NCBI GenBank assembly: GCA_032622095.1
Contig: CP136063.1
Span: 93,783,980-93,847,979, forward strand
Origin: Siphonodentalium dalli
Lineage: Eukaryota; Mollusca; Scaphopoda; Gadilida; Siphonodentaliidae
Reading direction: 5' to 3'
Length of the DNA: 64,000 nt
Part shown: positions 20,535-62,748 of the stretch, one piece after another
How the letters are laid out: every line of letters starts with the position of its first letter
Position numbering within the stretch: the stretch's first letter is position 1
Notes under the pieces: model-generated
Seen by the model: the letters and a program-made list of their open reading frames with translations, nothing else
Told to the model about the DNA's origin: nothing
Database searches by the model: none
Made by a program: the position numbers and the translations under genes

Positions 20535-20540
20535 TAGAAT

Positions 20541-22029
20541 TATGGAATCCTATTACGACCACTTGCTAATGGCGCTTTCGGTGCACTTTTTGTCGCTTTC
20601 GGCGCGCGCGCCGAAAGCGACAAAATGTGCGCCATTAGCGTTGTTTCGGCGCGCGCCGAAAGCGCGGAAAGCGCCGAAAGCGACAAAATATGCGCCGTTA
20701 CGGCGCACTTTTTGTCGCTTTCGGCGCTTTCGGCGCTTTCGGCGCACCGCGCCGAAAGCGACAAAATATGCGCCATTAGCGCATTCGGCGCGGTGCGCCA
20801 TTATTGCATTCGGCGCGATGCGCCATTAGCGCGGTGCGCCGAAAGCGACAAAATATGCGCCATTAGCGCATGTACAATTAAGTATGTGATCACCCCAGCA
20901 GGGGTGCCGGAAGAGGGGGGCAGTGGGGGCAGCTGACCCCCTGCCCTTGACCAAGGGGGGGGGGGCGAGTGGGGGCAGGACTTGCCCTTTTTTTGGAGAC
21001 AGAAAATGCTTTTTGTGTGTATAATCTCGTGTTTTATAGCAAAATGTTACTTTTTTGGTCCAAATACCACCAATTTCACAAGGAATATTAATTTTTTGTC
21101 AATATTATCACAAAACGGCCATAAAAACCGACAAATACCTTTAAAAATAGGGATTTTTGCCACAAGGAATTTATGTTGAACAAATAAAAAGTTTTGAGAA
21201 AATTGATACCATACATGTATATATATAGTTGGTATATATAGTGGTTATCATTATTTTGTAGAAATGCATCGATTGACCAGTAACTTAGGACCGTCTGATC
21301 GGATTGAGTACCTTTAACTGCCCACAAAGGAGGGACCAGGACCACACGGCCACAATAATTTTAAATCTGAATAATGACAAATTATAGCATTTAGAGGTCT
21401 ATCTACAGCAAAATTCAGCCCCTCCCTTTTAAAATTAATACATAGTCCTATACATTGTACATATGGCCATGTCCGATCTGCACTGGGGTGCAGGGGCACC
21501 GGAAGCGCCTACAAAATGAGCACTTTTCTGAAAAAAAGGGCATTTTCTCCGCAAACTCGGAAAACTAACCATAAATTCATTGTGGCAAAAATCCCTATTT
21601 AAAAAAATTAATATTCCTGGTGAAATTGGTGGTATTTGGACCAAAAAAGTCACATTTTGCTATAAAAACACGAGATTAAACACACAAAAAGCATTTTTTG
21701 TCTCCAGAATAAGGGCAAGTCCTGCCCCCGCTCGCCCCCCCCCCTTGGTTAAGGGCAGGGGGTCAGCTGCCCCCTCTGCCCCCCTCTTCCGGCACCCCTG
21801 CTGGGGTGATCACATACTTAATTGTACATGCGCTAATGGCGCATATTTTGTCGCTTTCGGCGCACCGCGCTAATGGCGCATCGCGCCGAATGCGCTAATG
21901 GCGCATATTTTGTCGCTTTCGGCGCGCGCCGAAACAACGCTAATGGCGCACATTTTGTCGCTTTCGGCGCATCGCGCCAAAAAGTGCGCCGAAAGCGCCA
22001 TTAGCAAGTGGCCGTAATAGGATTCCATA
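20541..22029. mobile_element. GC-rich palindrome-built foldback element, 1.5 kb, TAGAAT target duplication
   Basis: The ends are inverted (TATGGAATCCTATTACG / complement) and flanked by TAGAAT at 20535-20540 and 22030-22035. Inside each end is an array of short palindromic modules combining GGCGC, TTTTGTCGCTTTCGGCGC and GCGCCATTAGCG. Further in, the arms continue complementary through a G-run block (20890-20980 / 21715-21800), TTTTGGTCCAAATACCACC and TTTTTGCCACAAGGAATTTA to about 21180 and 21567. The loop holds a family-A MITE end (about 21285-21318). The modules give open frames in several readings of both strands; none is a gene. Confidence 0.85.
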
Positions 22030-22381
22030 TAGAATAGAATATTCATTGCAATACACCAGATATATAGGCAGTTGCATGTTATATAATGAGTTAAAACGTA
22101 AAACATGTAAATACAAATGAACATAAATTGTGTTCAATATAACAATTTGATGCAATGCATCGTCATTCAACGACCACCAATAACTTCTCATGTTTATCTC
22201 TATAATATACTAAACTTTCAAAGACCCCCTTCTGAGACGTACAGAACAACCGGATCATGGATCATGTTGAATACGGTATTTATAATCTTTGCATCACCAT
22301 TTCTCATAATCGTTTGAAATATTTTATTGTCGCTCATTTTTGAAATTCACCCTTAATCATCCATTAGAATTTATTAAAATA

Positions 22382-22864: not shown

Positions 22865-23729
22865 AATATTAATCTTTTTTTTTTGTATTGGGAATAAATA
22901 TTGTTTACACCAATCGACATCATATAATTCAAATTTTCCCGCGTTTCCTGGCATTAGCGGGAAAATTATGTATTCACAGTTCGGGCATATAGAGTTGTTT
23001 ATTATAGGCGGAGCCTATTTCGAATTGTAGCCAATGAGAATGAGATTTGTGGTAATTGTTCGGATCGCTAGAGCGGAGAATTCGTCATTCTAGCCGTGTA
23101 ACTTCACTGAGAGGGTCACATTAATTTTCAAAAAATTTTAATAAAAAATTTTCAATCAAATGAAAGAAATTATCAATGCTGTGTCCAGCTATATAGCGTT
23201 CTTCATTCTGTAATATAACTCAGCTGAAAGATGACAAATTATTCACAATGTTCAGAATATTGATACATCTATAATTATGAGTAGATTTCAATAAGGGTGC
23301 GGTCCGAACACCCGAGCTGCACATACGAGTGGGCTTCGGATTTCAGGTTTCCAGTCCCTATATAAAAGGGGTGAATGGTTTTTCCTGACCGGCTGTGCAG
23401 ACTTTCTAGGATGTATTTACATTGTGTATGTAAAATATTATAGCATGTGCCCACATATAACCTGTAAAGCATGTTACGCAATAAACGCCGTCTGTGACCA
23501 CAGCTAGCGCGGCTCAGTTGCAAATGAGTGTTTGTTTGAAATATGAGAGAATTGGGAATACTGGAGAACTCACATCATATAATTGCAACAAAGCCACATA
23601 AGGCCGCTATGGATTTCCTTACACATGCTACAAGACTGTGATATATATAGTCTAGTCTCTGTTTCACGCTGAGTACTATCAAGTTCTTGCATGAGCATTT
23701 TCTTTATTACATATATCCATCTGAAGTAT
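22865..23729. other. No recognisable feature
   Basis: AT-rich DNA between MITE A3 and the KLHL pseudogene tail. Confidence 0.4.
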
Positions 23730-23932
23730 TCATTAATCTCAGTCTGAGTAATAATAGTCATAATAATGATCTGAATCATAATACTAATCAACGTCACCAT
23801 AGCAGTACCTGGTAGACATTAATGACACTTGTTATTGTTGATGTAATATGTGTTGTAAAAACAGACATGCAATGACTCTCTGAAATCCTGTTCGAATTTT
23901 CTTTGGCACATTGTGGACAGTCGTTGTGACAG

Positions 23933-24224
23933 TTAAAGGCCCACTTAATTATATAATCACCAGATCACGTTATATACAACATATTCCATATCGTATTCTA
24001 TTTAAAAGAGGAGGCTCAAAAATTGTATTATCAACTTATCCGGTCGAATAAACTGTGACCATGTTGTTTTTGTCAAGTTACCGACGTGTGTTCTGTGCTT
24101 AATTTCGATCTGGTCTGCACTGCTAGTTTATTATTCTCGATGGAAGGAAATAACAATATCTCTTATTTTTTAATTTTGAGGCATTCTATAAAAAAAAAAT
24201 CTCGAAAATTAAGTGAGCCTTTAA
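23933..24224. mobile_element. TTAA-bounded MITE (family B) inside the KLHL pseudogene
   Basis: The ends are inverted: TTAAAGGCCCACTTAATT on the left and AATTAAGTGAGCCTTTAA on the right, 292 bp including TTAA at both ends. TTAA target use is typical of piggyBac-type elements. A related, more decayed copy lies at about 39470-39987. Confidence 0.7.
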
Positions 24225-24230
24225 AACATC

Positions 24231-25597
24231 AGGAATATCATCTGCTTGTATAACAGTCCACTTCTACGAACGGAAATCACATATACGGGCAGAGGTTACA
24301 TGCTCAGGAATATCATCTGCATGTATAAGCAGTCCACTTATACAAACGGAAATCAAATATACGGATAGAAGTGACATGCTCAGGAATATCATCTGCATGT
24401 ATAACAGTCCACTTCTACGAACGGAAATCAAATATACGGATATAAGTTACATGCTCAGGAATATCATCTGCATGTATAAGCAGTCCACTTATACGAACAG
24501 ACATCACATATACGGGCAGAAGTTACATGCTCAGGAATATCATCTGCTTGTATAGCAGTCCACTTCTACGAACGGAAATCACATATACGGGCAGAAGTTA
24601 CATGCTCAGGAATATCATCTGCATGTATAAGCAGTCCACTTCTACGAACGGAAATCAAATATACGGGCAGAAGTTACATACTCAGGAATATCATCTGCAT
24701 GTATAAGCAGTCCACTTCTACGAACGGAAATCAAATATACGGATAGAAGTGACATGCTCAGGAATATCATCTGCATGTATAACAGTCAACTTCTACGAAC
24801 GGAAATCAAATATACGGATATAAGTTACATGCTCAGGAATATCATCTGCTTGTATAGCAGTCCACTTCTACGAACGGAAATCAAATATACGGGCAGAAGT
24901 TACATGCTCAGGAATATCATCTGCTTGTATAGCAGTCCACTTCTACGAACGGAAATCAAATAAACGGATAGAAGTTACATGCTCAGGAATATCATCTGCA
25001 TGTATAACAGTCCACTTCTACGAACGGAAATCAAATATACGGGCAGAAGTTACATACTCAGGAATATCATCTGCATGTATAGCAGTCCACGTCTACGAAC
25101 GGAAATCACATATACGGGCAGAAGTGACATGCTCAGGAATATCATCTGCTATATATATATATAGCTTGTATAGCAGTCCACTTCTACGAACGGAAATCAA
25201 ATATACGGATAGAAGTAACATGCTCAGGAATATCAGCTGCGTGTATAACAGTCCACTTATACGAACAGAAATAACATATACGGGCAGAAGTAACATGCTC
25301 AGGAATATCATCTGCATGTATAGCAGTCCACTTCTACGAACGGAAATCAAATATACGGATAGAAGTTACATCCTCAGGAATATCATCTGCATGTATAACA
25401 GTCCACTTCTACGAACGGAAATCAAATATACGGATAGAAGTGACATGCTCAGGAATATCATCTGCATGTATAACAGTCCACTTATACGAACGGAAATCAA
25501 ATATACGGATAGAAGTGACATGCTCAGGAATATCATCTGCATGTATAACAGTCCACTTCTACGAACGGGAATCGCATATACGGGCAGAAGTGACATG
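24231..25597 (-). repeat. Kelch-blade-derived minisatellite, 18 units of about 75 bp
   Basis: AGGAATATCATCTGC recurs at 24231, 24306, 24382, 24457, 24533, 24608, 24684, 24760, 24835, 24910, 24985, 25060, 25135, 25227, 25301, 25377, 25451 and 25527. The period is 75-76 bp, except one unit enlarged by an AT run near 25150. Minus-strand translation gives EHVTSIRIFDFRS, then a stop or Tyr, then KWTVIHADDIP. This aligns with RHVTSACRFDFHSCAWSDI + DDIP of KLHL-A and ATSVCRFDFLSGKWSDVGDI + PE of KLHL-B. Because 75 is divisible by three, long open frames appear on both strands; these are not genes. Many units carry an in-frame TAG where others have TAT. Confidence 0.9.
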
Positions 25598-25645
25598 GTC
25601 ACGATCTTTCAAGTTCCCCAAAGATCCACACAGCTAGATTAGTCA

Positions 25646-27393
25646 TCAATCTGAGTCTGAAGAATAATAGCCATCGAATCCATTATAATCATCATAAAGT
25701 TGCTGATCATAGACGTTTCCGGTGAGTAACTGTAACATTCGTTCTTCTTGTTCGTGTTGGTGTTGTTGAAATGATTCGCATGCGAGGGCTCTCTCAATTG
25801 CCGTCAGTTCAACTTTAACTTTGCGGGCGCAGTGCCGACAATCGATGTGACATTTCAATCGCTGAGATGGAACTTCTGTTACAACATTGTTGTCGCAGCC
25901 AGTTAAGCCGGCAGGAATATCATCTATATCAGACCATGCACATGAGTGGAAATCAAATCTGCATGCGGAAGTGACGTGTCTATCATAATCCCTGGGGTCG
26001 ATTCCCCCGAAAATATATAATGAATCCCCACAACTAGCGTGACAGAACTCTTTTCGTTGGGGTTTGGTTTCTGGCCTGGGAATCTTAAGTGCTTTTGAAT
26101 TATTCCCTCTCGAAGCTTCTTCTGTATAATCCCCATCAAGTCGAGCTGTTTTCATTTTTCCATTGTACTTGAACCACATCGCATCAAGAAATCCGGCACG
26201 AGATGCAGCTTCCCCAGTTTCGACATTATGCATACTTAGACGGGCCTTCTCTGATTTTCCATCCGCAGCTGCCGCTGCAATTTGGGCTATCACACAAATG
26301 TACTTTCCAACAACAGAGGAACACAGAGTGAGAGACCCTGTGCCATGCCATGTGCCAGCCGTCTTTATGAACAGAACTTGACCGTCAGATATCTCGTAAA
26401 TATTATATTGTACAACTTTTCTGAACCTGCCGCAGAAACCTTTAAAGAATGGACGAGGTAGCGCAACAATGATTAGTTTATCATGAGAGCAGTGCATTCC
26501 CTTAATTTGATCGGGCTTTAGATTTGATCTACCTATAAATGTAAGTTCTGAACTGGACCACTCATCTTTCTCCATATCAAATATATGTAACGAACTCAGC
26601 TTGTCATCTCCGTCAATCGCAAACAAATTCTTACCGTTGCAGGCAAGCTTTGGTATCGGCATTATTTTTGGAAGAGATGTGAAAAATGTCCATCTGGACT
26701 CAGAGGGTATGTATGCGTAAACAAGATTCCCTCCCTCGCGGCCTGCATTCAAAACGCTGGAAATATGTTTGCGGCCTACAAGTAAGATGACTTCTTTCGT
26801 GCCCGTCACTTCGCCCAGATCATATCGCATTATGATGTCACGGACATGGATCTCGCAAGCTTTATTTTCTTGAACAAAGGGGTGTTGATCTATTTTCTCC
26901 AGATAAGAGCGGGGAACCGCTTCCAAGTCCAGCTCACAAAAAAGATCACCAAAGCTTGATTCTCGATTTTCCTTACCATGTTCCACCCATCGGACAATGA
27001 ATTCAAAGAATTTCTCTCGAGGCACATGGTTCAATGTTGGGTCAGTGATTAATCCTCTGACCATGTCGGCAGTTACGCCAAATGCCACATCTTTCTCTAA
27101 GATCTCTTGCAGATGCTCATGCAAGAATCGTACGATTCGTAGTGCTCCGCATTCCTGACATTCAGCGCTATACTTGTCGCACATGATCCACAATTCAACA
27201 CAGTTTGTTGTAGTAATCTCGCATTCTGAAAGATATTCTACGCAGTGTTTCTTCAGAGAGTCAATCTGAAGATAGTCAGCGCAATCAAGCAGTTCTCGAG
27301 CAGCTTCAAATGAGAGCTTCACAGAACCCAAGTATAGAAACTCAATAGCTGTCTTCATCGCAGTGGGAGCCCCGTACTTTAGTTTAACCACAG
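25646..27393 (-). CDS. KLHL-A coding exon 3 (end of BTB, BACK, Kelch region, tail)
   Basis: The acceptor is TTTTGCAG|CTGTGG; the split codon with exon 2 gives Ala before VVKLKYGAP. The exon is a single open frame to a stop at 25646. It holds the BTB C-terminus, BACK, the Kelch region and a tail about 25 residues longer than that of KLHL-B. A short poly-Ala stretch sits in the middle of the Kelch part. The stop lies only about 10 bases from the remains of a second exon 3 in the same orientation. Confidence 0.92.
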
Positions 27394-30300: not shown

Positions 30301-33300
30301 TGGTATATTACTTTCTCCCACCAAAACACAGGTCAAGTTCAAATTTGAGTTCCGTCCGCCAATTTTTACCAGAGTTATGCCCCTTTTTGATCAGTTTCCG
30401 CCGACCCAAGAGAGGGCGTATATTGCACGCCCAGCGTAGCTCTTGTTAACAAATAAAAATCCTCAAAAGCAGCTGCAAAATGCATACATTTACAGCGTTG
30501 GCGCAACGAAACTGGATAAGAATTTAACTTTAATGAACAAAGCAATCATTTTTGCATTGTCTGGTGCTTGTGTCATGCACGGTTTTTCGAAATAGTATTA
30601 ATCCGTCTGAATCAATATGTAAGGATGCGGCGCGGACATTTTGTTTAGCGAGATGCCAAGTTATATGTAGCAGGCGCCAATTCACAACTATACATGTATA
30701 TAGGGAGATATAAGGAAATATGTAATGTTTTTTTTTTACTGATATATAATACGGGTTTCATATGATATATTTGAATGAAATAATATAGTTTGGTACTGTG
30801 CTTACCTGTTGCATCATTTCTCAGTATATGACGAGGGTGACTTCCATTCCTTATTCCGTATTCGTTGTTCAAATTTCAGAAGACAAAGGCCAAGTTTGAA
30901 TTTGGTCACGGTCTGATGAGTTAAATAAAATCTATCCTTACTTTAAAAAAAGCCACTTTTTCTGGGGTTAAATGACGCGTGGTCGGCGACCTTTTATTTC
31001 ACCTAAATCGGTCAATGGACCGAGAAATGACATGGGTGCCCTATTTGAACTCATCTGGACGGAGGCCATTTTGGTTCGGGGTGGGTGTGATGGGTGAATA
31101 TTTTGAATCTCTTGGGAGCCACCATAGAACACCCTTTGTTTGACCTAAATCGTGGTGCCCCATTTGAATCCCTCTGACGGCGGCCATTTTGGATCGGGAT
31201 GGGGTGTTGGGGTGTGTGGAAAGGGTGCATGGGGGCCACCCTAAAACAGCCTTTGTTTTACCTAAATATATATTTGTTTTCGAATAAGGAACAAGGAATG
31301 GAAGTCACCTTCGTTATGATATGCCCTTATTATATAGTGACTGGAGAACGATGTATGCATCACCAAGTTGGACACTCATGAAATACTGGCATACCATGTT
31401 TTGAAATTCTGATGTAAATTAAAGTTAACACGACTGTGTAGAAATGTCGCCATAAGACCCACCTGTTTCTTTTTCCTTGAAGCTACAGTTATACAATGAA
31501 CGGAAGTAAGGGCACATGACCAAAACAGACCAATGGGCTGCCAGTTCCTGAAATGAGAGTAGGATCAAATCTTAAAGCCTCGCGTGGCAAGTGTACACTA
31601 TTTTATTCATGGTTGACAAACATACCTTTTCCTCATACGCAATTAGACGGTTGCACCCCTGGTCAAGTGGTCCTGCAGAAATGCTATGAAGTTGGTGGGT
31701 CCTGCTGTGATGCGGTTAGTACAAAGCGATGCTGGTGACCGCGTGATAATCTCACATCGAGAGTTTAGACGTAATTTGAGTAATTTAAAATGGCGTATTG
31801 TTGATTCAAGTGGTGAAATCGTCTGCTGGAATGCTTCTGCAATCACACTAACGTTTTTTGGGGGCTTAAATAGAAATTAAATAGGTCATTTTAATCCAAT
31901 TTGTGACATTCCTGTTATTTCGCCATTTATATCCAAATAATAGCAATAATGTATAAACATGACATGTAGAGAGGTACAAACAAGCATACTGAAGGCTTTA
32001 GGCAGTGACAAGTATTTGGACATTTCATACGGCACAAGCAGGTGACAAATAAATTGATGGATCCAAAGCGATGTTGTTGAGGATCCGCTATGAAGCTGTT
32101 AAATATACAAACCGATGTTGGTGGGCGTACAACATGATGTTGTTTGTGAAACAACATTCCATTGTTTCGGTCGCTATTTAGGTTAGTTATGGCCATCGCA
32201 CGGTCGTGTGACAAATATTCAAGAACGAATGAACACCTCTACTCATCGAATGTCCTTCTTCGCGCTCAAGTGTGTTGGTCGCATAAACAGAAGAATTATC
32301 GTTTTCCAGCTTTTTCTGGAAATGGTATCCCTAAATGTATTTTTATATATGTGTAGGCATATTGCACAGGTCCCTAGAACAATAATTGACCCCATCCAAT
32401 AGTACTTGATCATATTAGTACTATTGGGGTGGGTAAATTTTTGTTCTGTGAACTGTGTCATATATGCGCCTACTATAGGACGTATAATTCCGCCATATTA
32501 AGGCGGATATGCATGTATATACACAGTATTGTGATGTATAAGTACAGCTGATATATGCCGTGCCATTAGGCGTAAGTACGTGGTACTACATTGTGTTATT
32601 ACGCCGTACAAAATGGCGTAATTACGCCATATTACGGCGAATATATGTCGTACTGAGACGTAATTACGCCGTATTACAGATAATATACACCACATTATAG
32701 GGCGTATGTACGTCGTGCTCGACTTAATTGCGGCGTATATGTGTCGTATTAGTAGGGCGAAAGTACGCCGCACCATGGTGTAATTACGCCATGCTAGCGC
32801 TATAGGTGTTTAATTCATTCAGAAATGAAACTCGGTAAAATATTTTGGTCTTCAAAATACAACGATGTAGAATTAAAATAGAATGTGACTACAGTGAATG
32901 GCATTAGAATATCAACACAATTCTTCTAATACCACTTTTATATAATGAATGGGTACCCGTGTTAAATCATGTGGTCAAGATTAAACGATAGAAAAACCGA
33001 AAACCACACACCGATTGTGCCAAAATAAACGGTGCGGTATGGTAGCCCACCTCAATTTACATTTAGTAAAACCGAAAACCGAATCCCTCCAGCCAGTGCG
33101 GTTGGCCCAGAAGGTGGCAAAACGCGGATATCCAATGCCGTTTCGGTATTTATGGACCAATTTTGACAAAATAAACGGCGCAGTAGGGTGGCCCACACCA
33201 AATTATACTATAAAACAAAGGTGGCAAAAAGGGCACCGGCCCATTGCCGTTTCGACATGTGTGGATCGATTGGGCCAAAATAAACGGTGAGGTATGGTAG

Positions 33301-36300
33301 CCCACCTCAAATTATGTTTGGAAAACCGAAACCACACCATTCTAGCCCGTGTGGTTGCCACAGGAGGTGGCGAAACGGATACCCAATGCCGTTTCGGTAT
33401 TTATTGACCAATTTTGACAAAATAAACGGCGCAGTAGGTGGCCCACCCAAAATTATACTATAAAAACCGAAAACCGCACCCATCTAGCCCGTGCATGTGG
33501 TTGCCACAGGAGGTGGCAAAAAGGGTACCCATTGACGTTTCGACATTTATGGAACGATTGTGACAAAATAAACGGTGCGGCATGGTAGCCCACCTAAAGT
33601 TATGTTACAAAGAACAAAAACCACTCCCCGCTAGCCCGTGCGGTTGACACAGGAGGTGACAAACTGGACACCCATTGCCGTTTCGATATTTATGTGGACC
33701 GATTTTGACAAAATAAATGATAGTGTGGCCCACCCCGAGTTATACTATAAAAACCGAAAACCACACCATCTGTCCCGTTTGGTTGCCACACGAAGTGGCA
33801 AAAATGACACCCATCATTGCCGTTAACGAAATTTCGGTATATATAGACAGATTTTGACCAAATAAACCGTGCGACAGTGTGGTCCATTCCAAGTTATACT
33901 ATAAAAACCGCACCCTTCTATCCCGTGTGGTTGCCACATGAGGTGACACCCATTGTCGTTTCAGTATTTAGGGCAAACGCACGGGCTAGAAGGTTGCGGT
34001 TTTCGGTTTTTCTAACATAATGTTGGATGGGCCACGCTACCACACCGATTATTTGGGCTCAATCGGTCCATAAACACAGAAACGGCGTTGGATGCCCTTT
34101 TTGCGACCTCCGGTGGCAACCACACGCGCTAAAGAGGTGCGGTTTTCAGTTTTTCTAGTATAGTTTGGGTGGGCCACCCCACTACACCATTTATTTTGTC
34201 AAAATCGGCCAACAAATACCGAAACGACAATGGGTCTCCTGTTTGCCACCCACTGTAGCAACCGCGCGGTCTAGAGGGTGCGGTTTTCGGTTTTTCTAAC
34301 ATAACTTGAGGTGAGCCACCCTATCGCAGCGTTAATTTGGTAAAGTTTGCATGCTTCCGAATAAGAAATAAGTAACTGAGAATAAGTAACCAATGTCACG
34401 GTATAGTCCAATTTGTGATATTAGGGTCATTGTTCTCGATTCTAAAGATGTTTCTGCCTTCACGGTGTACTGTATTTTCTCTCCTTGTGGTGTTTAAAAT
34501 CGATTTGTTCATGGTTTGGGTTCAGTAATATGGAAGAAAAATATTTCAACAACATCAGAGTGGATCCTCACCAACATCAGTGTGGATTCTCACCGGCATC
34601 ACATTGGTCCCACACCAACATCAGTGTGGACCCTAAAATACCAAATCGGGCTTGTCTCAAGCGTACGCTGTATATCTTTTGAATGAATGTGTATCTTTGT
34701 TATTAAAATCATCATTCCCGTCATATGGGATGATTTCAGCCGTGTAACGCGACAAAACGTGGGTATTTGGGCATAACAATAACTATGTTAATACTCGCCA
34801 AAGAACGCCATTCTTAAGTCGTCCGCGGAGTTGCAGAATGTATGTATGTCGGAGGTTTTAGTACATTCGTGTGTGATCATCAGAATGCTTAGATCGTGTT
34901 GTAATTGCTTAGTTTCGATGTAAACACGAGGCGGAACGCGCGCGCGGTCACCATAATTGCAGCATCGCTTTGTACTAACCGCAAAATAGCAAAACAGCAG
35001 GACCCACCAACATCATAGCATTTCTGCAAGACCACTTGACCAGGGGTGGGTTGACCTGTTTATATACCATAATGTTTGGCGTGGCACGACCAACGCACAG
35101 ATACTATAATGGTACGCACATGTTCACACGCTGACACTACTCTATTGTTTATTGGTCATAGCTGATACTAGAAGAACCATGATGAATGATACATCCATGT
35201 TGGTTTCTGTTCTGTTCCAACCACGACATGCTAGTACAAGAAGCCACAATCATTCCACGCATATTTATGCCTGCACAGTAGTGATCGGTCATTCAATAAG
35301 CACAAGATTTGGTTATTCTTTTCGCTACATATGCACGGTTCGTGCAGCTAGACATTTGGCACAAAACTTCTGAACGGTTTGACTAGTACGTGTCGGCGGC
35401 ATGGTCCGGTGACTTCGTTGGCAATGACAACATAAGTTACACGTACGTGTGTCAGATCCTGGCTTTTGCTGAGCTGATAACAATATATTATGAATACTGC
35501 GCGGGTTTGAATTATTATCTATAAACTTTGAATCACACAAGAAGATTCCATATATCATATTTATAGATATAACGGAGATGACTATGGGGCGCAATCCCTG
35601 CAAATATTCGTTTTCGGAGATATCTCCTTGGATCCAAGCAGATATCTGCTCGCATTATGGAGATATCTCATCGGTTTCAAGGAGATATCTGCTTGGAATA
35701 TGGAGATATCTCCTCGGAAATATTTTCAAGGAGATATCTCCTTGAAACCGAGGAGATATCTCCATAATGCGAGCAGATATCTGCTTGGATCCAAGGAGAT
35801 ATCTCCTTGAATCAGAGCAGATATCTGCTTGGATTGTGGAGATATCTCCTCTGTTTCAAGGAGATATCTCGTTGGAAATATTTCAAGCAGATATCTCGTA
35901 GTTGCGAGGAGATATCTCCTAGGATCCAAGGAGATATCTCCATAATCCAAGCAGATATCTCCTTGGATCCAAGGAGATATCTCCATAATGGACCATATTC
36001 CAAGCAGATATCTGCTAGGAATTGCAATTCCAAGGAGATATCTCCGCGAAACCGAGGAGATATCTCCGAATTACGAGGGGATATCTCCGAAAACGAATAT
36101 TTGCAGGGATGGCGCCCCATAGATGACTAAATATAAGTTATGCGGAAATCAGCGACAGATACCACTCCCCATTCCACCCCTGACAGCGTCACTTTTTTTT
36201 TAACCTGCACTACATTCTTGTTCGTGAAAGATTGCACTTGTAGATTTGGAGCCCTCTACATTGTTCCCCGGTAATGTCTACAGCGGACAGGCAGACTGAC

Positions 36301-38084
36301 CATTGCAAGATTTGGAATATATATATTTCATTTATATATATACATCAATATAAATGTTTTAGATTATTCGAAATGCAGACATCGACAATAATTGCTACTG
36401 GCCTCGATCGTCGTGAACAATGATATACAGCCGTACGCAATGCGAGCACGTGCTGGTCGACAACCGACAACACGACCATTGGGCATGCATATCAAAATGC
36501 TAGTTTTCCAGACAAACCTTCCAGTGTGTGAACGTGCACTAAGTGTATTGAAGACAAATATTTGTTAATCACAAAATTTATCACTTAAAAACATATTATA
36601 GACTTGTTCAGATGCCTGTAACTGATAAGTTAGTATTCAGGGGCTATGTCAACTGGAGAAATGTAGCATTCTACTAACATCGCCGAAAATTTCAAGCAAA
36701 TCGACCTTACCACTCCATGGGAAACATCGTCTCAACTGTGCTCAATTGTAAATATTTACTTCTCGATTCGGGACGCAACTATTGGTGATAAAATAAGTTT
36801 TACTAACGAAAACGATTTCGCAACCAATAGTCACTGCGTTTAATTAATATACAAGAATGACGGCGTGCGTTGTCAACTTGGATATGATAATTGTGAAAAA
36901 TAACTAGTTTGAGCAAGATATTCTCCATTTCTATTTGATCACCATACCGGAGTGTTTCACATCACTTTAATGTCGGGCAATGATTAATAGCCATACGAAA
37001 AAATCATGGAAATATGCCTGTACTTTTAACAGTTGTGTGAGCTTAGCCCAATATATCATGTGTACGTGGCCGGAAAATCCGCCCAACAGTAGTTGAAGTG
37101 ACAGCAGGTGCCACTTGCACGGTGGTGAATCACGTGGTTTCGACGTTGGTGCGTACCACACATTCAAAATGGTCGAGGCTAATGCAAACGCACACAAACA
37201 TAATATATGAAGAACTGACACAAAACATATCATTTTGACTGTTATACGAGCATATGCTAGTTTATTTTAAAAACAAGATGATACATTATTTGTTCGGAAG
37301 TATTCAGTATAATTTTCTATAACATTCAGACCAAAGTTGCCAGTCGGAGGTTCGTGGAATACACCAGTCCATACATCTTGGAGAATCATTCGACTGACAA
37401 CTTTGGTCAGAATGTTAGAGCAAACAACTGGGAGTTTGGACACACACATGAGGTATCAGCTTGTTTGAAAACTAGTACAGCATATGCCCGTAGCTACCAA
37501 AATACTATGTAATATATTACTATCCTAAATTATTACCTTTTTCCTCGTTTCAGGTCGTGTTTGCGAACGCTTCGGCCATTTTGAATGCGTGGTATACTCA
37601 TCAATTCGAAACCACGTGATTCCCCACCGTGATTCGGGACTCTAAATACATTTATTGCTAAGTTATTTCAGCTAACATTTGTCATTATTTTAATTGTCCA
37701 CAGCCCCGACCCAGGACATATGGAGGCTCAAAGTCCCACGGGAGTGCATGTAGGATACTCCTCAAATGGTAGTTGTTGACCCGGTGGGTAAATGAAAATA
37801 AAAACCAATGAATGTATAATACGGAAAGAAACAAATCAAACGCCAACGAAAAGCTCACTTCCTATACAACATGTCATGATCACATATTCGTGCATTGATA
37901 CACTACACAGGTTCACCTTGATTCACATATGGTTCATGTTGGCACTTACCATCTCTCCCATTACTATGGTTACATCGCAAATTTCTGATTTTTCCTGCGT
38001 TTGTTTGTACAAATGTTCCTGAAGTGCTGTGACCCCTTCGTACTTCGATCCAATAACTGTTTTCGCCTGCGAATCGCTTTGCAT
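25646..38084 (-). CDS. KLHL-A: BTB-BACK-Kelch protein, three coding exons (gene span)
   Basis: Coding exons are 38084-37950, 31547-31463 and 27393-25646; joined in frame they give about 655 residues, the usual KLHL length. The BTB domain covers about residues 20-130 (CDVTIVMGEM, then ELAAHWSVL, CPYFRSLYNC and LQIDSLKKHCVEYL), BACK about 135-245 (including ADMVRGLITDPTLN and FFEFIVRWVEHG), and a poorly conserved Kelch region about 255-560, where LYIFGG and the CRFDFHSCAWSDI blade are clearest. The C-terminus has a Cys knuckle (CHIDCRHC), a Gln/Glu-rich stretch and an acidic Tyr-rich tail ending YYSSDSD. KLHL proteins usually recruit substrates to Cullin-3 ubiquitin ligases in the cytosol; that role is inferred from the family. 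KLHL-B is its paralogue in the same orientation. Introns of about 6.4 and 4.1 kb are full of transposons. A non-coding first exon probably lies near 39011. Exon structure is inferred from splice signals and paralogue agreement. Confidence 0.88.
27495..28020. mobile_element. Foldback MITE family C in KLHL-A intron 2
   Basis: The ends are complementary: ATGAATCTCTACTCTG, then TAACGCCCGTAGAGATCATA, against TATGATCTCTATACGGGCGT, then CAGAGTAGAGATTCAT. Arms extend about 250 bases each (TAATAACACGGGGAA, CTGTTCCTTAATAA). Relatives are in the arms of 7035-9415 and at 62965-63345. Confidence 0.75.
28086..28272. mobile_element. MITE family F, copy 2
   Basis: The inverted ends are TTAACCCTTTCTATACTAAA and TTTAGTATAGTAAGGGTTA. 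It lies in KLHL-A intron 2. Confidence 0.65.
28708..28847. mobile_element. Near-perfect hairpin MITE, about 140 bp
   Basis: Arms of about 55 bases pair (GGAATTTACAAAACGAGT with ACTCGTTTTGTAAATTCC; CAGTTTATA with TATAAACTG) around a loop of about 30 bases. It lies in KLHL-A intron 2. Confidence 0.75.
29471..30447. mobile_element. Element with AACAAGAGCT ends and five internal units of about 171 bp
   Basis: The ends are AACAAGAGCT and AGCTCTTGTT, with inner TTATACGCCC and GGGCGTATA also inverted. Units start at TGTCCGGATGATAAC-type blocks near 29567, 29738, 29911, 30081 and 30252, each with GAGTTATGCCCCTT. No protein-coding frame spans the units. It lies in KLHL-A intron 2. Confidence 0.75.
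30800..31370. mobile_element. Repeat with inverted flanks and two units of about 125 bp
   Basis: The flanks GGTGACTTCCATTCCTTATT (about 30837) and AATAAGGAACAAGGAATGGA (about 31284) are complementary. Between them, GGCCATTTTGG and CCTTTGTTTGACCTAAATC-type blocks occur twice (30990-31140 and 31145-31265). Confidence 0.55.
31463..31547 (-). CDS. KLHL-A coding exon 2 (middle of BTB)
   Basis: This 85-base exon encodes ELAAHWSVLVMCPYFRSLYN followed by CSFKEKET. Its acceptor is TTTCAG|GAACTG and its donor is ACAG|GTGGGT, in phase 1. With this donor the spacing from the PYF motif to the FLYL strand (38 residues) matches the usual BTB fold. Confidence 0.85.
31645..31750. repeat. Inverted repeat partner of 34943-35052
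   Basis: CCCCTGGTCAAGTGGTC, AGAAATGCTATGA, TTGGTGGGTCCTGCTGT and GGTTAGTACAAAGCGATGCT all recur in complement at 34943-35052. It lies just upstream (on the minus strand) of KLHL-A exon 2. Confidence 0.7.
32466..32810. repeat. Array of short TACGCC/GGCGTA palindromic modules
   Basis: TACGCCGTA, GGCGTAATTACGCC, TACGGCG and TACGTCG-type motifs repeat in both orientations about every 15-30 bases. It resembles in design the arrays at 20541-22029 and 35584-36120. Terminal repeats are not clear. Confidence 0.65.
32985..34345. repeat. Tandem array of about 105-150-bp units that flips orientation
   Basis: AAAATAAACGG-type blocks at about 33024, 33168, 33275, 33420, 33566, 33712 and 33862 mark forward units with GAAAACCGAAAACC, CCGTTTCG and GTGGCAAA. 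From about 33960 the same unit appears inverted (GCGGTTTTCGGTTTTTCTA at about 33998, 34140 and 34281), giving three reverse units. Confidence 0.8.
34346..34942. other. No gene; short repeated blocks
   Basis: At 34555-34630 CACCAACATCAG and GTGTGGA(T/C)CCTCACC-type blocks recur three times. Otherwise I see nothing. Confidence 0.4.
34943..35052. repeat. Inverted repeat partner of 31645-31750
   Basis: It is complementary to 31645-31750 with two short insertions. The 3.2 kb between the pair is filled with other elements, so this may be the footprint of one large composite element in KLHL-A intron 1. Confidence 0.65.
35053..35575. other. No recognisable feature
   Basis: Intronic AT-rich DNA of KLHL-A. 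Confidence 0.4.
35584..36120. mobile_element. AGATATCT-palindrome foldback element, 537 bp, 8-bp target duplication
   Basis: Terminal inverted repeats of about 44 bp begin ATGGGGCGC and run through CCCTGCAAATATTCGTTTTC with about one mismatch in the first 40. Flanks are identical 8-bp copies of AGATGACT (35576-35583 and 36121-36128). The interior is about 20 copies of a 10-12-bp palindrome, (G)GAGATATCTCC or GCAGATATCTGC, spaced by 10-20 bases of CTTGGATCCAAG-like or CATAATGG-like linkers. Open frames (KEISPR..., DISL...) are products of the repeat. It lies in KLHL-A intron 1. Confidence 0.9.
36129..36790. other. No recognisable feature
   Basis: AT-rich intronic DNA with a short AT tract at about 36315-36345. 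Confidence 0.4.
36795..36975. repeat. Dispersed repeat, copy 1
   Basis: Direct match to 56838-57015: GAAAACGATTTC, AGTCACTGC, TTTAATTAAT, AGAATGACGG and GAGTGTTTCACATCACTTTA. A weaker relative lies around 42090-42170. Confidence 0.65.
37075..37640. mobile_element. Foldback MITE family D, copy 2, in KLHL-A intron 1
   Basis: The outer arms pair (GGTGGTGAATCACGTGGTTTC at about 37121, written here as part of the arm, with AAACCACGTGATTCCCCACC at about 37610). The inner arms pair at ACCAAAGTTGCCAGTCG and CGACTGACAACTTTGGT. It matches 18950-19400. Confidence 0.65.
37950..38084 (-). CDS. KLHL-A coding exon 1 (start of BTB)
   Basis: This exon encodes 45 residues from ATG at 38084 and carries LQEHLYKQTQEKSEICDVTI of the BTB domain. 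It ends at a strong donor, ATG|GTAAGT, in phase 0. The paralogous exon at 62748-62617 is nearly the same length and ends at the same GTAAGTGCC donor. A pyrimidine-rich AG acceptor just upstream (exon would begin at 38092) implies a preceding non-coding exon. Confidence 0.85.
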
Positions 38085-39469: not shown

Positions 39470-39987
39470 TAATTTTCGAACCCCCAGATCAAACTCCAGG
39501 CAGAGTTATCTCCCATCGCTCCGCTGAGATATATCGCAGTGATAACGTAGAGGGCGCTGCATGGAGTTTGATAAAGTTTATGCCATAGTATATACCATTT
39601 GAAAGAGGAAGTTCCAAAATATTGTATCACCAACTTATCCGTTGTAATTAACTGTGAACATCTTGTTTTTGTTGGGTTACTGACTTGTTTTTTTCATCTG
39701 GATTGTAGTTCAGATTGTATTATTTTCAATGGAGGGGGAATAACTCTAAATCTTAAAGATAGAGTTATTCCCCTTCAATTGAAAATACATTTTTAGTTTG
39801 AATTCTGATGCATTCTGGGAGTAAAAACGAGGGTAATCTTTCAATGATTTCAGCTGTTTTCTATTTCTCTATTGGCATCTTCTGAGACACAGACGTTTCA
39901 AATGGTGATGAATTATAGTATTTTAATCATATTTTATGGCATAGATTGTTATTAAAACAGTATATAAAAAAATCAGTGGGCCTTTCA
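39470..39987. mobile_element. Decayed family-B MITE copy
   Basis: It shares internal sequence with 23933-24224 (for example the region around AACTTATCCG and CTTGTTTTTG) and ends with a GTGGGCCTTT remnant. It contains a strong hairpin at about 39719-39785 around GGGGAATAACTCTA and its complement, plus a separate inverted repeat at 39488-39563. Confidence 0.5.
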
Positions 39988-55870: not shown

Positions 55871-55975
55871 GTAACACTTGTCCCCTATTCGACACTCATG
55901 CGAGTAAGGGTGTATTTTAATGTGACCCCGAAAGTAACCATGGCGATATCGTGAACACACCGGAAATATTCGGAA

Positions 55976-56479
55976 ATGAGGTCTGTGAGGATGATGATAT
56001 GTGTTTCGACGGGAGTTGCTGTGCCAAGATACAGACGTGAGATTGTGTTGGGTGTAAATTTGATCGGATTGAAGGGATACAGAATTTACGCAAAGGGTCG
56101 TAAATTCGACGGAGCCGTGCAGTATTACGAAGATCAAGGGGGACAACTCTTCGTGGTGGAAAATCACACCCATGCAGTGGCAGACGATAGCTCATCTGGC
56201 CATATAGCACACGACCTTCTGAATGGAACAAACTTGGCCGGATTCTGGGTCAACGGAAACGACAGATCGTTAAACGGAAGTTTCGTCACAACATCCGGGG
56301 AACCGATGCCATTTGTGAAGTGGGGACCAAACGAACCAGATTACTACTCAGGCGCCAAAAACACGATTACCGACTGCATAGAACTAAGGGAGGACGATGC
56401 CTTTCAAACGAATGATGCGCGCTGTTGGTTGAAAATTAGAGGATTTATCTGCGACCTGACTGCCTCGATATCAATTTGA
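55976..56479 (+). CDS. C-type-lectin-like domain exon (partial or single-exon, possibly decaying)
   Basis: The 167-residue frame carries a C-type lectin fold from about residue 33 to the end: GYRIYAKGRKFDGAVQYYED, then QGGQLFVVENHTHA, GFWVNGNDRSLNGSF, FVKWGPNEPD, DCIELREDDAF, TNDARC and GFICD. Such domains bind carbohydrate or protein ligands outside the cell, often with Ca2+. Here the Ca2+-site motif reads EPD instead of EPN or QPD, and WND is TND. The first conserved Cys, expected in the AVQYY stretch, is Tyr, so the last Cys (FICD) has no obvious partner. No signal peptide is visible, so upstream exons are likely or the gene is degenerate. The overlapping frame just upstream (55921-56037) reads as Cys-rich (EVCEDDDMCFDGSCCAK) before a TGA, suggesting a frameshift or missed splice. 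The start codon is uncertain. Confidence 0.6.
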   Translation: MRSVRMMICVSTGVAVPRYRREIVLGVNLIGLKGYRIYAKGRKFDGAVQYYEDQGGQLFVVENHTHAVADDSSSGHIAHDLLNGTNLAGFWVNGNDRSLNGSFVTTSGEPMPFVKWGPNEPDYYSGAKNTITDCIELREDDAFQTNDARCWLKIRGFICDLTASISI

Positions 56480-58708: not shown

Positions 58709-60336
58709 TCAATCCGAGTCTCCATAGAAATAAGATTCCTCCGAATCGGATTGATAATAGACCTCTGAGTCAGAAAAGTCGTTTTCAGCTTTTATTTTTC
58801 TGGCGCAGTGTGGACAGTCGATGTGACATTTCAATCGTTGGGATGGAACTTCTGCCACTGTAGTGTCGCAGGAAACTAACATCTCAGGAATATCACCCAC
58901 ATCAGACCACTTCCCGGAAAGGAAATCAAATCTACAAACAGAAGTGGCGCGCTCACATTCTTTCAAGTTCCCACCGAAGATATACAATAAATCCCCACAG
59001 CTCGTATGACATTCTGTTATAGACATAGTTACTGGTCTGGGAATATTGACGGCATTTGAATCTGTCAACTTCCATGCTTCTCCCGTGTAACCTTCGTTTG
59101 CCAGACGAACTGTTTTTATTAATCCTTTGTGAGTGAACAATATCTCATCGAAATATCCCTCACGAGATTCGATGGTACCAGTGTCGACGTTATACATAAG
59201 AAGCCGCGCCTTCTCTGATTGTTTATCCTCACCCACAAGCACACAGATGTAACTCCCAACAACAGAAGATTTTACCTTAGTAGGCTCAAGCCCTTCACCA
59301 ATTGTCTTTAGGGTCGAAACTTGAAGGCCAGCGATGTCGTAGACATTATATTTCACATTCTTTTGAAGTTTGTCAGAGGAGCCTTTGAAGAATGGGCGGG
59401 ACAGCGCAACAATGATTAGTTTATCATGAGAGCAGTGCATTCCCACAATTTTGTCGGGTTTTAAATCTGAACCACCTGTATATGTCAGTTCTGAACAGGA
59501 CCACTCATCTTTCTCCATATCAAATATATATAACGAACTCAGCTTATCATCTGCATCAATCGCAAACAAGTTTTTACCTCGATAGGCAAACTTTGATTTC
59601 TCCATTATTTCGGGAAGAAAAGTGAACAGTGTCCATCTGGACTCCGATGGTATGTATGCGTAAACACGATTCCCTCCCTCACCTTCACGACTTCCAATCA
59701 AGTTCCTATAATCGGAATTAGTGTTGCGGCCAACAAGTAAGATCACTTCTTTCATTCCCGTCACTTCACCCAGAGCATATCGCATTATAACGTTACTGAC
59801 GTGGATCTCACAAACTTCATTTTCTTTAACAAGAGGGTGTTGTTCTATTTTCTCAAGAAAAGAGCGGGAAACCGCTTCAAAGTCCATTTCACAAAAAAGA
59901 TCCCCAAAGCTTGATTCTCGATTTTCCTTATCATCTTCCACCCATCGGACAATGAATTCAAAGAATATTTCTCGGGGCACATAGTTCAATGTTGGGTCGG
60001 CGATTAATCCTCTGACCATATCGGTAGTTAATCCCAGGGCAGCATTTTTTTCTAAGACCTCTGGTAAATTACCACGCACGAACTGTAGCGCCTCCTTGTG
60101 AAATTCAGCGGCATACGTCTTGCCCGTTATCCACAATTGTACACAGTTTTCTGCAGTAATGTCGAAATTTGAAAGATAAACTACACAGTGTTTCTTCAGA
60201 GAGTCAATCTGGAGAAAGTCAGCGCAATCGAGAATTTCCAGAGCAGATTCAAAGGAAACTTCCGCAGATCCCAAATATAGATACTCAATAGCTGTCTTCA
60301 TTGCGACCGGAGCCCCGTGCTGAAGTTGAACCACAG
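58709..60336 (-). CDS. KLHL-B coding exon 3 (end of BTB, BACK, Kelch region, tail)
   Basis: The acceptor is TTTTCGCAG|CTGTGG; the split codon gives Ser before VVQLQHGAP. One uninterrupted frame runs to the stop at 58709. It is clearly homologous to KLHL-A exon 3 throughout, and differs mainly by the shorter tail and the lack of the poly-Ala insert. An AATAAA lies about 150 bases downstream (58563-58558, minus strand) and could be the polyadenylation signal. Confidence 0.93.
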
Positions 60337-62748
60337 CTGCGAAAAAATATGATGTAATTGATGATAATTGTTTACAACGTCACTATTAATAACAATTATT
60401 AATACCATCAAATTTCCAACTACCCGCAGTCTTTATATTCACTGAATTGTGTATTATTTATATGGTACCTCGGAATCCATGCAGAGAGATCAAGGAAGGG
60501 GTGCAACATTTTAACCCTTTCTATACTAAATGGACTCTCCCACCCAGCTATAAAAGTATACATTGAAACGGCCCATCATTCATTTGGAGAGGTTTGCAGG
60601 TAATACAAGCAAACAACCGATAAAAAACAAACATATAATAAAAGAGCAAAATGGTTCATTTCCATTGATGGGAAATGTTCATATAATAATTTCAACAAAC
60701 AACGTTTGTTGAACTTATTATATGAACATATCCTATGTGATAGCTACTCGTCAATGATGATTTAGTGTAGAACGGGATAACACATATAAACTTGACCAAT
60801 CTGAATTTCAGCACTGAACTCACACGTTTCTTTTTCCTTGAGGCCACAGTTGTACATCGACTGGAAGTAAGGACATCTGAGCAAAACAGACCAATGAGCT
60901 GAGAGTTCCTGAAAAAGAAACAGGTCTGATTCATCTTTATACCATGTGGTTAGGGACGTGGCTATATGATCTCCATTGGCGCGAGTGTCCACGTTAGATT
61001 TCCCAACTCCACCGCTATACAGTATTCCATTTTCACCCTCACCTCCTGGTTAGAATTATCATCAGGTGGTATTCCAACTATTGGAACCTGGAAATTCTAT
61101 AAGAGTGGAATGTTTCCAAATATTGGTAATTTCGGTTCTACATTTTAACTAATCAGAACAATTTCAACTTATTTTTGAAGTGATATATCCAACTGATTAT
61201 TTAAATTTTCTGTTGAAAACTTTTACCAACATTGGCGGGCGTACTAGTTGGAAAAGTTCGACCCAATGGGCGGCTCAAATTAAATTGGAACTGGTTCAAA
61301 GGTTGTAGTAGTTGAACATTCGAAGTTGTATACCATATGCCAACGAAGGCCCTCAAACCACGTCACTGAAACCACTGAATTGCATCAGCTTTCCGGACAA
61401 AAGTGAAACAATCGCTCTTTTTATTTACCAAGTATATAGCAAATTATTTGTTAATCATTTCACGATATATGTAAATTTCATGATCAAATGATAATTGACT
61501 CATTAATTTTGGTGGTCGTATCACAGGAAATAATGACCACTAATGTTGTTTAAGGGACGTGGGTACGGGGTTGGGTTCCAGGTTTTCACTTAGCGATCAG
61601 GTGACCCATATTTTTTTGCTTGGAATTTAATCGTGCAATCTTTTGATGCTTTGCAAAGTTCACATGATGTTTTCGACTGTTGGAATGTGTGATGAGCCAG
61701 TAATTCGAAAATTCCAACCTAATGGCGTGAAGCATATGAAATTTACCGATTTCGAATTCGTGGGGGTTGTAAATGAGAAATTCAAAGTTGAAGATTTCTA
61801 AATCATCACTAAATATAACGTCCATGCGATTCTAATATATTTAGCTTTTGCTCCAGATATTCGCTTGGAAGTACCGATTCAGAATTTGTCACTTCTTTTG
61901 GGACGTGACTGTATATAGGATCCCATTGCATGGGGTGTCCACCTGGAAATTTCCAACTGCACCTCTTGAATCAGTCCAAACTTCCATCATCGCGAAATTA
62001 TAAAAGCTAATAGCAGTCGTCAATGTTTTCGGACTGTCCACGATACGGTTTTTGAGAAAATTGTGCACTTCAAACTCATTGACACTCACAATAAGGTGAT
62101 GTGGTCCTGTTTGTCGTGATTATTAGTGCTTATTTATGTTGTTGTCAGGTCATATTCATGCAGTAGTAGGCTCGATGGTTGCACGCAAAGCACGCATGTC
62201 CAAGCTTGGTTTCTCGAAACCGTAATCGTAACTACTGATATGACAAAAGCACAACTGATAGAAAGAACTTGAATTACCATTAGCATAAATTAAACAGGAA
62301 TATCAATCTTCATCCGATTTGATTTGTGGCTTAACTAGGTCCAATGAAATATGATCTCCAAATTATTTCACCACATATAGGTAGTATAATACATATAACA
62401 AATGTAATGACTATGTGTTGGTCCGGCTAAGGATAATCGGTGATGTAACAGAAAGTAAAATAAAACAAACATTACATATACATGTAGGGTCATGTATATT
62501 GTCTCGAAAATTGATCAGAAACAGCTTCACATTACTCGTTGAAACGTGCAGCTTGGTTACGTTGAGGTACGAAACTAATGGTCATTCTGATTTACACGTT
62601 TCGTGGTGGCACTTACCATATCTCCCATCACTATGGTTACATCACAAAATTCTGATTTGTCCTGCGTCTGTTTGTACAAATGTTGCTGGAGGTCTGTGCC
62701 CCCTTGGTACTTCGATCCAACTGTGTGCGTGTGGTATTCGCTTTGCAT
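58709..62748 (-). CDS. KLHL-B: BTB-BACK-Kelch protein, three coding exons (gene span)
   Basis: Coding exons are 62748-62617, 60908-60824 and 60336-58709; joined in frame they give about 614 residues. The domain order is as in KLHL-A: BTB about residues 20-128 (FCDVTIVMGDM, ELSAHWSVLLRCPYFQSMYN, LQIDSLKKHCVVYL), BACK about 135-245 (FFEFIVRWVEDDKENRESSF), then a degenerate Kelch region with LYIFGG and CRFDFLSGKWSDVGDIPE. It ends with CHIDCPHCARK and an acidic tail (SDSEESYFYGDSD). The expected role, from the family, is a Cullin-3 substrate receptor. Introns are compact (about 1.7 and 0.5 kb), unlike those of KLHL-A; intron 2 carries a MITE. An AG acceptor 13 bases upstream of the ATG (exon would start at 62761) suggests a non-coding first exon, which I could not place with confidence inside the window. 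Confidence 0.9.
60510..60780. mobile_element. MITE family F, copy 3, in KLHL-B intron 2
   Basis: It begins AACCCTTTCTATACTAAATG and contains a palindrome around CAACAAACAACGTTTGTTG. It ends near GATTTAGTGTAGAACGGG, matching the inverted end of 28086-28272. Confidence 0.6.
60824..60908 (-). CDS. KLHL-B coding exon 2 (middle of BTB)
   Basis: This 85-base exon is the same length as in KLHL-A. The acceptor is CTTTTTCAG|GAACTC and the donor is ACGT|GTGAGT, in phase 1. The frame stays open beyond this donor, but the GTGAGT site restores normal BTB spacing and agrees with KLHL-A. Confidence 0.85.
60995..61990. repeat. Region dense in TTCCAAC / GTTGGAA motifs (KLHL-B intron 1)
   Basis: TTCCAAC, CCAACT, TTGGAAC and AGTTGGAAA occur repeatedly in both orientations, as in 1175-1510. 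No clean unit length or terminal repeats were found. Confidence 0.35.
62617..62748 (-). CDS. KLHL-B coding exon 1 (start of BTB)
   Basis: This exon encodes 44 residues from ATG at 62748 (MQSEYHTHTVGSKYQ...), aligned with KLHL-A exon 1 (MQSDSQAKTVIGSKYE...). It ends at ATG|GTAAGT in phase 0. A TTG nine bases upstream also extends the open frame, but ATG at 62748 matches the KLHL-A start. Confidence 0.87.

What the first reader, a model, noticed from the sequence alone, without database searches (positions are those of the whole stretch)
24231..25597. A single Kelch blade amplified into an 18-unit minisatellite
The 75-bp unit is not arbitrary satellite DNA. On the minus strand it reads as one Kelch blade (EHVTSIRIFDFRS..KWTVIHADDIP) homologous to the last blade of the two neighbouring KLHL genes. 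It keeps a period of 25 codons and sits in sense orientation about 40 bases beyond the KLHL-A stop, so a KLHL-A transcript that read through would carry 18 blade-like copies in its 3' region. Blade amplification by unequal exchange is how propeller repeats could grow; here it seems caught in DNA that no longer codes.
Basis: partly seen in the sequence, partly recalled or inferred. Interest (0 to 1): 0.85.

Follow-up and report, generated by a model that had tools for sequence, protein, structure and literature searches.

The report
Minisatellite grown from broken KLHL gene
Half of a protein-repeat segment, in the worn-down remains of an extra gene lying right behind an intact gene of the same family, was copied head-to-tail 18 times, most likely after it had stopped coding: a clear but basically ordinary birth of a short tandem repeat.

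Summary
The array is real: 18 head-to-tail units at 24231-25600 (13 of 75 bp, 4 of 76, 1 of 91), starting 45 bp past the KLHL-A stop. The unit consensus is homologous to the last Kelch repeat of the KLHL cluster genes (0 of 2000 shuffles reach the score for each of four cluster paralogs), and one own-genome DNA search found the array only here, plus a single blade of a KLHL pseudogene 45 kb away. Three corrections. (1) The unit is the second half of a Kelch repeat (Kelch_1 positions 26-41 of 46), not a blade. (2) It probably did not grow from KLHL-A. It sits inside remains of another KLHL 3' exon ("psi"): homology continues upstream of unit 1 and resumes below the last unit (CHNDCPQCAK, acidic tail with stop, some 3' UTR), interrupted by a TTAA-flanked insert. 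(3) Amplification most likely came after sense coding was lost: TAG stands in 14 of 18 units and its G matches four of five paralogs; five units shift frame; variable sites show no third-codon-position excess. KLHL-A looks intact and shows no poly(A) hexamer before the array's far end, so its 3' UTR probably carries the array (no RNA data). Best reading: neutral minisatellite birth in a pseudogene fragment.

The parts
24231..25600 (-). 18-unit minisatellite (13 units of 75, 4 of 76, 1 of 91 bp), unit consensus EHVTSARIFDFRS*KWTVIHADDIP
25601..25635 (-). upstream flank of the KLHL remnant psi (reads CGSLGNLKDR, like CGDLLYIFGGNLKECER of KLHL-B with a 15-bp gap)
24221..24230 (-). downstream flank of the last unit, continuing the exon for about ten bases (DIP-DVL, like DIPDVLEGG of paralog C); a short stretch, not tested alone
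23937..24220 (-). 284-bp insert in psi with near-perfect terminal inverted repeats and TTAA on both sides (MITE-like, inferred); its 3' half matches window 39579-39691 (77%) and L033:1308-1462 (80%)
23902..23931 (-). psi remnant coding CHNDCPQCAK (paralog B: CHIDCPHCARK)
23739..23780 (-). psi acidic C-terminal tail YDSDHYYDYYYSD and stop codon (paralog C: NYDSDHSQYYSSDSE)
23641..23738 (-). psi 3' UTR, weakly similar to that of KLHL-B, with AATAAA at 23708
25646..27393 (-). KLHL-A exon 3 (rest of BTB, BACK, Kelch match, acidic tail, TGA at 25646-25648)
31463..31547 (-). KLHL-A exon 2 (BTB, inferred), AG/GT splice sites
37950..38084 (-). KLHL-A exon 1 with ATG (BTB start, inferred), GT donor
58709..60341 (-). 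KLHL-B last exon, open relative used for comparison (upper end approximate)

Best explanation
A KLHL cluster holds KLHL-A, two neighbours with open last exons (B and C) and a pseudogene (P). A further copy, perhaps B-like, lost most of its body and survives as a 3'-exon fragment fused about 10 bp behind the stop of KLHL-A. After this fragment had acquired a stop codon (TAG), a 75-bp piece of it, the second half of its last Kelch repeat, was duplicated in tandem, perhaps through a 3-bp TGA match at its two ends. Unequal exchange or replication slippage then raised it to 18 copies, leaving a weak five-unit pattern. A small TTAA-flanked element inserted just below it. The array probably codes for nothing and probably lies in KLHL-A's 3' UTR as a passive minisatellite. 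Shown: homology, its continuation on both sides, absence of an open sense frame and of third-position excess, single locus in the search done. Inferred: order of events, duplication mechanism, 3' UTR membership, neutrality.
For: Unit consensus against shuffles, 0 of 2000 for A, B, C and P. Upstream of unit 1 psi shares the run GGGAACTTGAAAGA with KLHL-B, and downstream pieces match A, B and C in order (B 82.5% over 40 bp, E 7e-6; A 82.9% over 35 bp, E 4e-5; C 73% over 67 bp, E 3e-5; tail and 3' UTR to B 67% over 113 bp, E 0.001). Shuffle control: CHNDCPQC piece 0 of 2000 for B and C, 5 of 2000 for A; tail + UTR piece 0 of 2000 for A and B, 1 of 2000 for C. TAG in 14 of 18 units, 5 of 18 units shift the frame; variable sites 6/9/6 by codon position. 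Third base of the stop codon is G in B, C, P and D, T only in A (alignment). Own-genome DNA search: 6 matches, 5 in this array and 1 in P. Mean unit differences 4.38 at lag 5 and 4.88 at lag 10, against 5.21-5.69 at lags 1-4. KLHL-A 655-aa three-exon frame open; none of 11 poly(A) hexamers in 24231-25645, first AATAAA/ATTAAA after the stop at 24174, 24132, 23708.
Against: The unit consensus scores better against P and C than against B, while the flanks favour B; the tree of the 3' ends gives psi a long branch and weak support (79 and 38), and no downstream hit of psi to P was found, so 'B-like' is tentative. The frame of unit 1 is in the frame of the KLHL-A ORF, expected by chance one time in three but also if the array had once been coding. 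That TAG is ancestral rests on one site, with A dissenting and 4 of 18 units TAT. On the opposite strand part of the array is open for 272 codons stop to stop (24824-25642 +), longest ATG frame 140 aa. That frame scores 42.3 bits (cut-off 27, E 7e-11) with Pfam LAMB4, but its best stretch is 17 residues; two periods give 23.3 bits (below cut-off, E 6e-5) and one period nothing. I take this as a short resemblance added up over repeats; it is not explained further. The genome search scores only its best candidates.
Confidence: 0.8

Rival explanations
1. A disrupted, recently amplified beta-propeller: the array once coded for extra Kelch-type repeats and later decayed by stop codons and frameshifts.
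For: Disrupted propellers with blades beyond a stop codon, a Kelch-like one among them, are described (PMC9218822, passages). The period is 25 codons, unit 1 is in the frame of KLHL-A, and 4 of 18 units have TAT, not TAG.
Against: The unit is only half a Kelch repeat. TAG looks ancestral (alignment). No third-position excess among variable sites. KLHL-A's own C-terminal tail and stop lie upstream of the array.
Confidence: 0.08
2. A local tandem duplication of KLHL-A's own 3' end, followed by amplification.
For: psi lies directly behind the KLHL-A stop, and its tail piece matches A at 82.9% over 35 bp.
Against: The unit consensus matches A worst of the four cluster paralogs (30 against 43-64), though single units vary (unit 15 scores 26 with A, 21 with B). 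The GNLK flank and the 3' UTR match B.
Confidence: 0.08
3. An unrelated satellite that resembles a Kelch repeat by chance or landed beside KLHL-A.
For: Tandem repeats of this unit size are common (recalled).
Against: 0 of 2000 shuffles for four paralogs; homology continues beyond both array edges; no KLHL-free locus in the own-genome DNA search.
Confidence: 0.02
4. The array codes for a repetitive protein on the opposite (plus) strand.
For: 272 codons open stop to stop, ATG frame of 140 aa, Pfam LAMB4 at 42.3 bits for the whole frame.
Against: Best stretch 17 residues; two periods fall below the cut-off, one gives no match; the frame spans only about 11 of 18 units; the sense strand explains the origin of the unit.
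Confidence: 0.02

Closest known systems
Minisatellites / satellites seeded from other sequence
   Same: Short tandem array, 75-bp unit, indel and block-duplication pattern; a review says satellite repeats could in theory be generated from any sequence, and names rDNA spacers and transposable elements as seeds (PMC5615363, passages)
   Different: The seed here is an identifiable half Kelch repeat in its decayed exon; single locus in the search done, not a genome-wide satellite
Disrupted highly repetitive beta-propellers (Pereira and Lupas 2022, PMC9218822; abstract and passages)
   Same: Near-identical propeller-derived repeats directly downstream of a stop codon, sense orientation
   Different: There whole blades amplified in coding genes and then decayed; here a 25-residue half repeat, in a fragment that most likely no longer coded
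KLHL (BTB-BACK-Kelch) family; nearest solved chains Kelch-like 11 and Kelch-like 3
   Same: The last exons of KLHL-A and -B match BTB, BACK and Kelch_1 above Pfam cut-offs
   Different: Psi and its array are non-coding remains, not a member protein

Membership tests
Minisatellite (tandem array, unit of tens of bp) | head-to-tail copies of a 10-100 bp unit at one locus | tested here: met
   18 units, 75-bp period
Minisatellite | length variation among individuals | not testable with these tools
   one assembly only
Satellite DNA family | the repeat occurs in large or many arrays in the genome | tested here: not met
   6 matches: 5 in this array, 1 in P (counts are lower bounds by the tool's design)
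Kelch motif (PF01344) for the unit | match to the motif above the curated cut-off | tested here: not met
   three-unit peptide with Y at the stop: 15.6 bits against 20.1, positions 26-41 of 46; single unit with X: no family; control KLHL-B repeat 21.7 bits. Homology of the DNA to a Kelch-coding exon is met
Disrupted repetitive beta-propeller | complete blades amplified within a once-open reading frame | tested here: not met
   half repeat; TAG in 14 of 18 units and most likely ancestral, 5 frame-shifting units. Whether the frame was ever open is inferred from one site
KLHL family, for KLHL-A | BTB, BACK and Kelch domains in an intact spliced frame | tested here: met
   domains of exon 3; 655-aa joined frame; splice sites by sequence and similarity to B, no RNA evidence; the joined protein was not scanned
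KLHL pseudogene, for psi | colinear homology to the paralogs with disabling changes | tested here: met
   colinear pieces on both sides of the array, stops, frameshifts, 284-bp insert

The most novel reading that the evidence does not exclude
The pseudogene-born array is part of KLHL-A's transcript and, as a length-variable 3' UTR repeat in sense orientation to paralogous exons, changes expression of KLHL-A or its cluster; the fused pseudogene fragment would have given KLHL-A a new, variable 3' UTR.
Probability: 0.1. Interest if true: 0.5.

Novelty: new member of a known kind. Interest (0 to 1): 0.3.

Why it matters
It is an unusually legible case: seed exon, flanks, edge units, stop codon and later insert can still be read, so the order gene copy, nonsense, tandem amplification can be argued. 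It also warns that repeat-domain-like arrays behind a gene need not be growing domains; here a piece of a dead exon seems to have multiplied.

Tried and rejected
RNA structure as a function of the units: two 2-unit stretches fold no better than shuffles (z 0.61 and -0.10). Other such arrays in the cluster: TRF on L031 (P) and L032 (C) shows none, and the window's TRF list shows none at KLHL-B; L033-L035 were searched with the unit consensus only, where the hits outside the array were the blades of B, P and C. BTB start of KLHL-A by Pfam on 9 kb of translated upstream DNA gave nothing at E 0.1; the exons were instead found by A-B similarity. One search compared C and P in the wrong orientation; one search repeated it correctly. 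A first alignment of the insert's ends failed to show the inverted repeats; they were compared directly. Papers: Kelch with minisatellite, 2 papers, listing only, neither on this by title and start of abstract; other searches (listings, capped). The tree of psi did not settle its nearest relative. No relatives of this genome are held, so orthologs, array-length variation and expression were not looked at.

Full report
What was checked. Tandem Repeats Finder reports a 75-bp array at 24229-25601. On the minus strand it divides into 18 units at 24231-25600: 13 of 75 bp, 4 of 76 bp and one of 91 bp, the last with a palindromic AT insertion. Mean pairwise identity is 92.8%, range 85.3-100%. 45 bp lie between the KLHL-A stop codon (25646-25648) and the first unit.

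The units descend from a Kelch-coding exon. The unit consensus aligned with the last-repeat DNA of five KLHL genes scores 30 (A), 43 (B), 54 (C), 64 (P) and 24 (D); 0 of 2000 dinucleotide shuffles reach the score for A, B, C and P, and 4 of 2000 for the distant paralog D. With unit 1 and its edges as query the counts are 1 (A), 0 (B), 0 (C), 0 (P) and 10 (D) of 2000. The best identities are about 80% to P and 77% to C, against about 70% to A. The last exons of A and B are in the window; C (C3:93768136-93769851, open) and pseudogene P (C3:93762776-93764358, with stops) lie 14-21 kb to its left; D is on C6.

Half a repeat, not a blade. Three joined consensus units with Y at the stop reach 15.6 bits with Kelch_1 (cut-off 20.1) and cover profile positions 26-41 of 46; one unit with X at the stop matches no family. 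A KLHL-B last repeat, given as control, passes Kelch_1 at 21.7 and Kelch_6 at 30.2 bits. The unit is the second half of the repeat and lacks the first half with the GG doublet (that the doublet is diagnostic is recalled).

The array sits in a decayed KLHL exon. Upstream of unit 1 the DNA goes on as KLHL: it reads CGSLGNLKDRDHV against CGDLLYIFGGNLKECERA in KLHL-B, with GGGAACTTGAAAGA identical and a 15-bp gap. Below the last unit the exon goes on for about ten bases (DIP-DVL). A 284-bp insert follows (23937-24220), with terminal inverted repeats (14 of 15 positions including flanking bases) and TTAA on both sides; its 3' half matches window 39579-39691 (77%) and L033:1308-1462 (80%). That it is a MITE-like element is an inference. 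Then KLHL homology resumes in order: CHNDCPQCAK at 23902-23931, the acidic tail YDSDHYYDYYYSD with a stop at 23739-23780, and weak 3' UTR similarity to about 23641. BLAST values include 82.5% over 40 bp to B (E 7e-6), 82.9% over 35 bp to A (E 4e-5), 73% over 67 bp to C (E 3e-5) and 67% over 113 bp of tail and UTR to B (E 0.001); no downstream hit to P was listed. Shuffle control: CHNDCPQC piece, 0 of 2000 for B and C and 5 of 2000 for A; tail and UTR piece, 0 of 2000 for A and B and 1 of 2000 for C. I call this remnant psi. Its nearest relative is not settled: flanks and UTR favour B, units favour P and C, and the tree places it on a long branch with support 79 and 38.

Amplified, most likely, after coding was lost. 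TAG stands in 14 of 18 units and TAT in 4. In the alignment the third base of this codon is G in B, C, P and D and T only in A, so TAG is the simpler ancestral state; this rests on a single site. Five of the 18 units change the frame. The 21 variable positions fall 6/9/6 on codon positions 1/2/3 (those with a second state in two or more units: 3/4/3), without the third-position excess expected of constrained coding repeats. Unit differences average 4.38 at lag 5 and 4.88 at lag 10, against 5.21-5.69 at lags 1-4, 5.30-5.56 at lags 6-9 and 6.33-6.43 at lags 11-12, a weak sign of block duplication. The repeat junction CCTGA/GCATG lies where upstream GTGACCATG and downstream CCTGATG share TGA; a microhomology origin is inferred from this.

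The opposite strand. On the plus strand 24824-25642 is open for 272 codons stop to stop; the longest frame from an ATG is 140 aa. The 272-aa frame scores 42.3 bits (cut-off 27) with Pfam LAMB4, with a best stretch of 17 residues; the other 8 listed families are below their cut-offs. Two periods score 23.3 bits (E 6e-5, below the cut-off) and one period matches nothing. I read this as a short resemblance added up over repeats.

KLHL-A. Three exons with canonical splice sites (38084-37950, 31547-31463, 27393-25646) give a 655-aa frame. Exon 3 matches BTB, BACK and Kelch_1 above cut-off. Pairwise dN/dS of the last-exon frames (a few intron codons included) is 0.41 (A-B), 0.50 (A-C) and 0.48 (B-C); for the three pairs with D synonymous change is saturated and no ratio was obtained. 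In 24231-25645 none of 11 poly(A)-type hexamers occurs; the first AATAAA/ATTAAA after the stop are at 24174, 24132 and 23708. The transcript of KLHL-A therefore probably runs through the array; there are no RNA data here. Two 2-unit stretches fold no better than shuffles.

Known context. Pereira and Lupas (PMC9218822; abstract and passages seen) describe propellers amplified from single blades and decayed ones with blades after a stop codon, including a Kelch-like case in a Verrucomicrobia bacterium. The present array looks like that at first sight, but differs in its half-repeat unit and in the likely order of events. A satellite review (PMC5615363; passages) says satellite repeats could in theory be generated from any sequence. 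A search for Kelch with minisatellite gave 2 papers, seen as listing only, neither on this subject by title. The finding is a well-preserved but ordinary kind of event, with a testable, low-probability 3' UTR role.

Noticed in passing
window 24824-25642 (+): Opposite strand of the array is open for 272 codons; the frame scores above the Pfam cut-off for LAMB4 through a 17-residue stretch repeated along it.
   Followed up: partly
L031:1740-4810: KLHL pseudogene P has its C-terminal tail split off by an insert of about 3 kb with inverted ends (AGGGCCAC...GTGGCCCT), read by eye.
   Followed up: partly
window 25148-25165: One unit carries a 16-bp AT insertion that makes the palindrome GCTATATATATATATAGC.
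   Followed up: no
window 25526-25648 (-): The frame of unit 1 is in the reading frame of KLHL-A, separated from it by stop codons; chance is one in three.
   Followed up: partly
window 35616-36093: Tandem array built on the palindrome GGAGATATCTCC, period 21-22 with multiples of 43 and 65.
   Followed up: no
window 20540-21100 and 21530-22130: Two neighbouring stretches rich in GCGCCATTAGCG / GCGCCGAAAGCG-type repeats, with similar translated sequence in opposite orientation.
   Followed up: no
window 55955-56479 (+): Open frame resembling a C-type lectin domain; Pfam Lectin_C 15.1 bits, below the cut-off of 22.6.
   Followed up: partly
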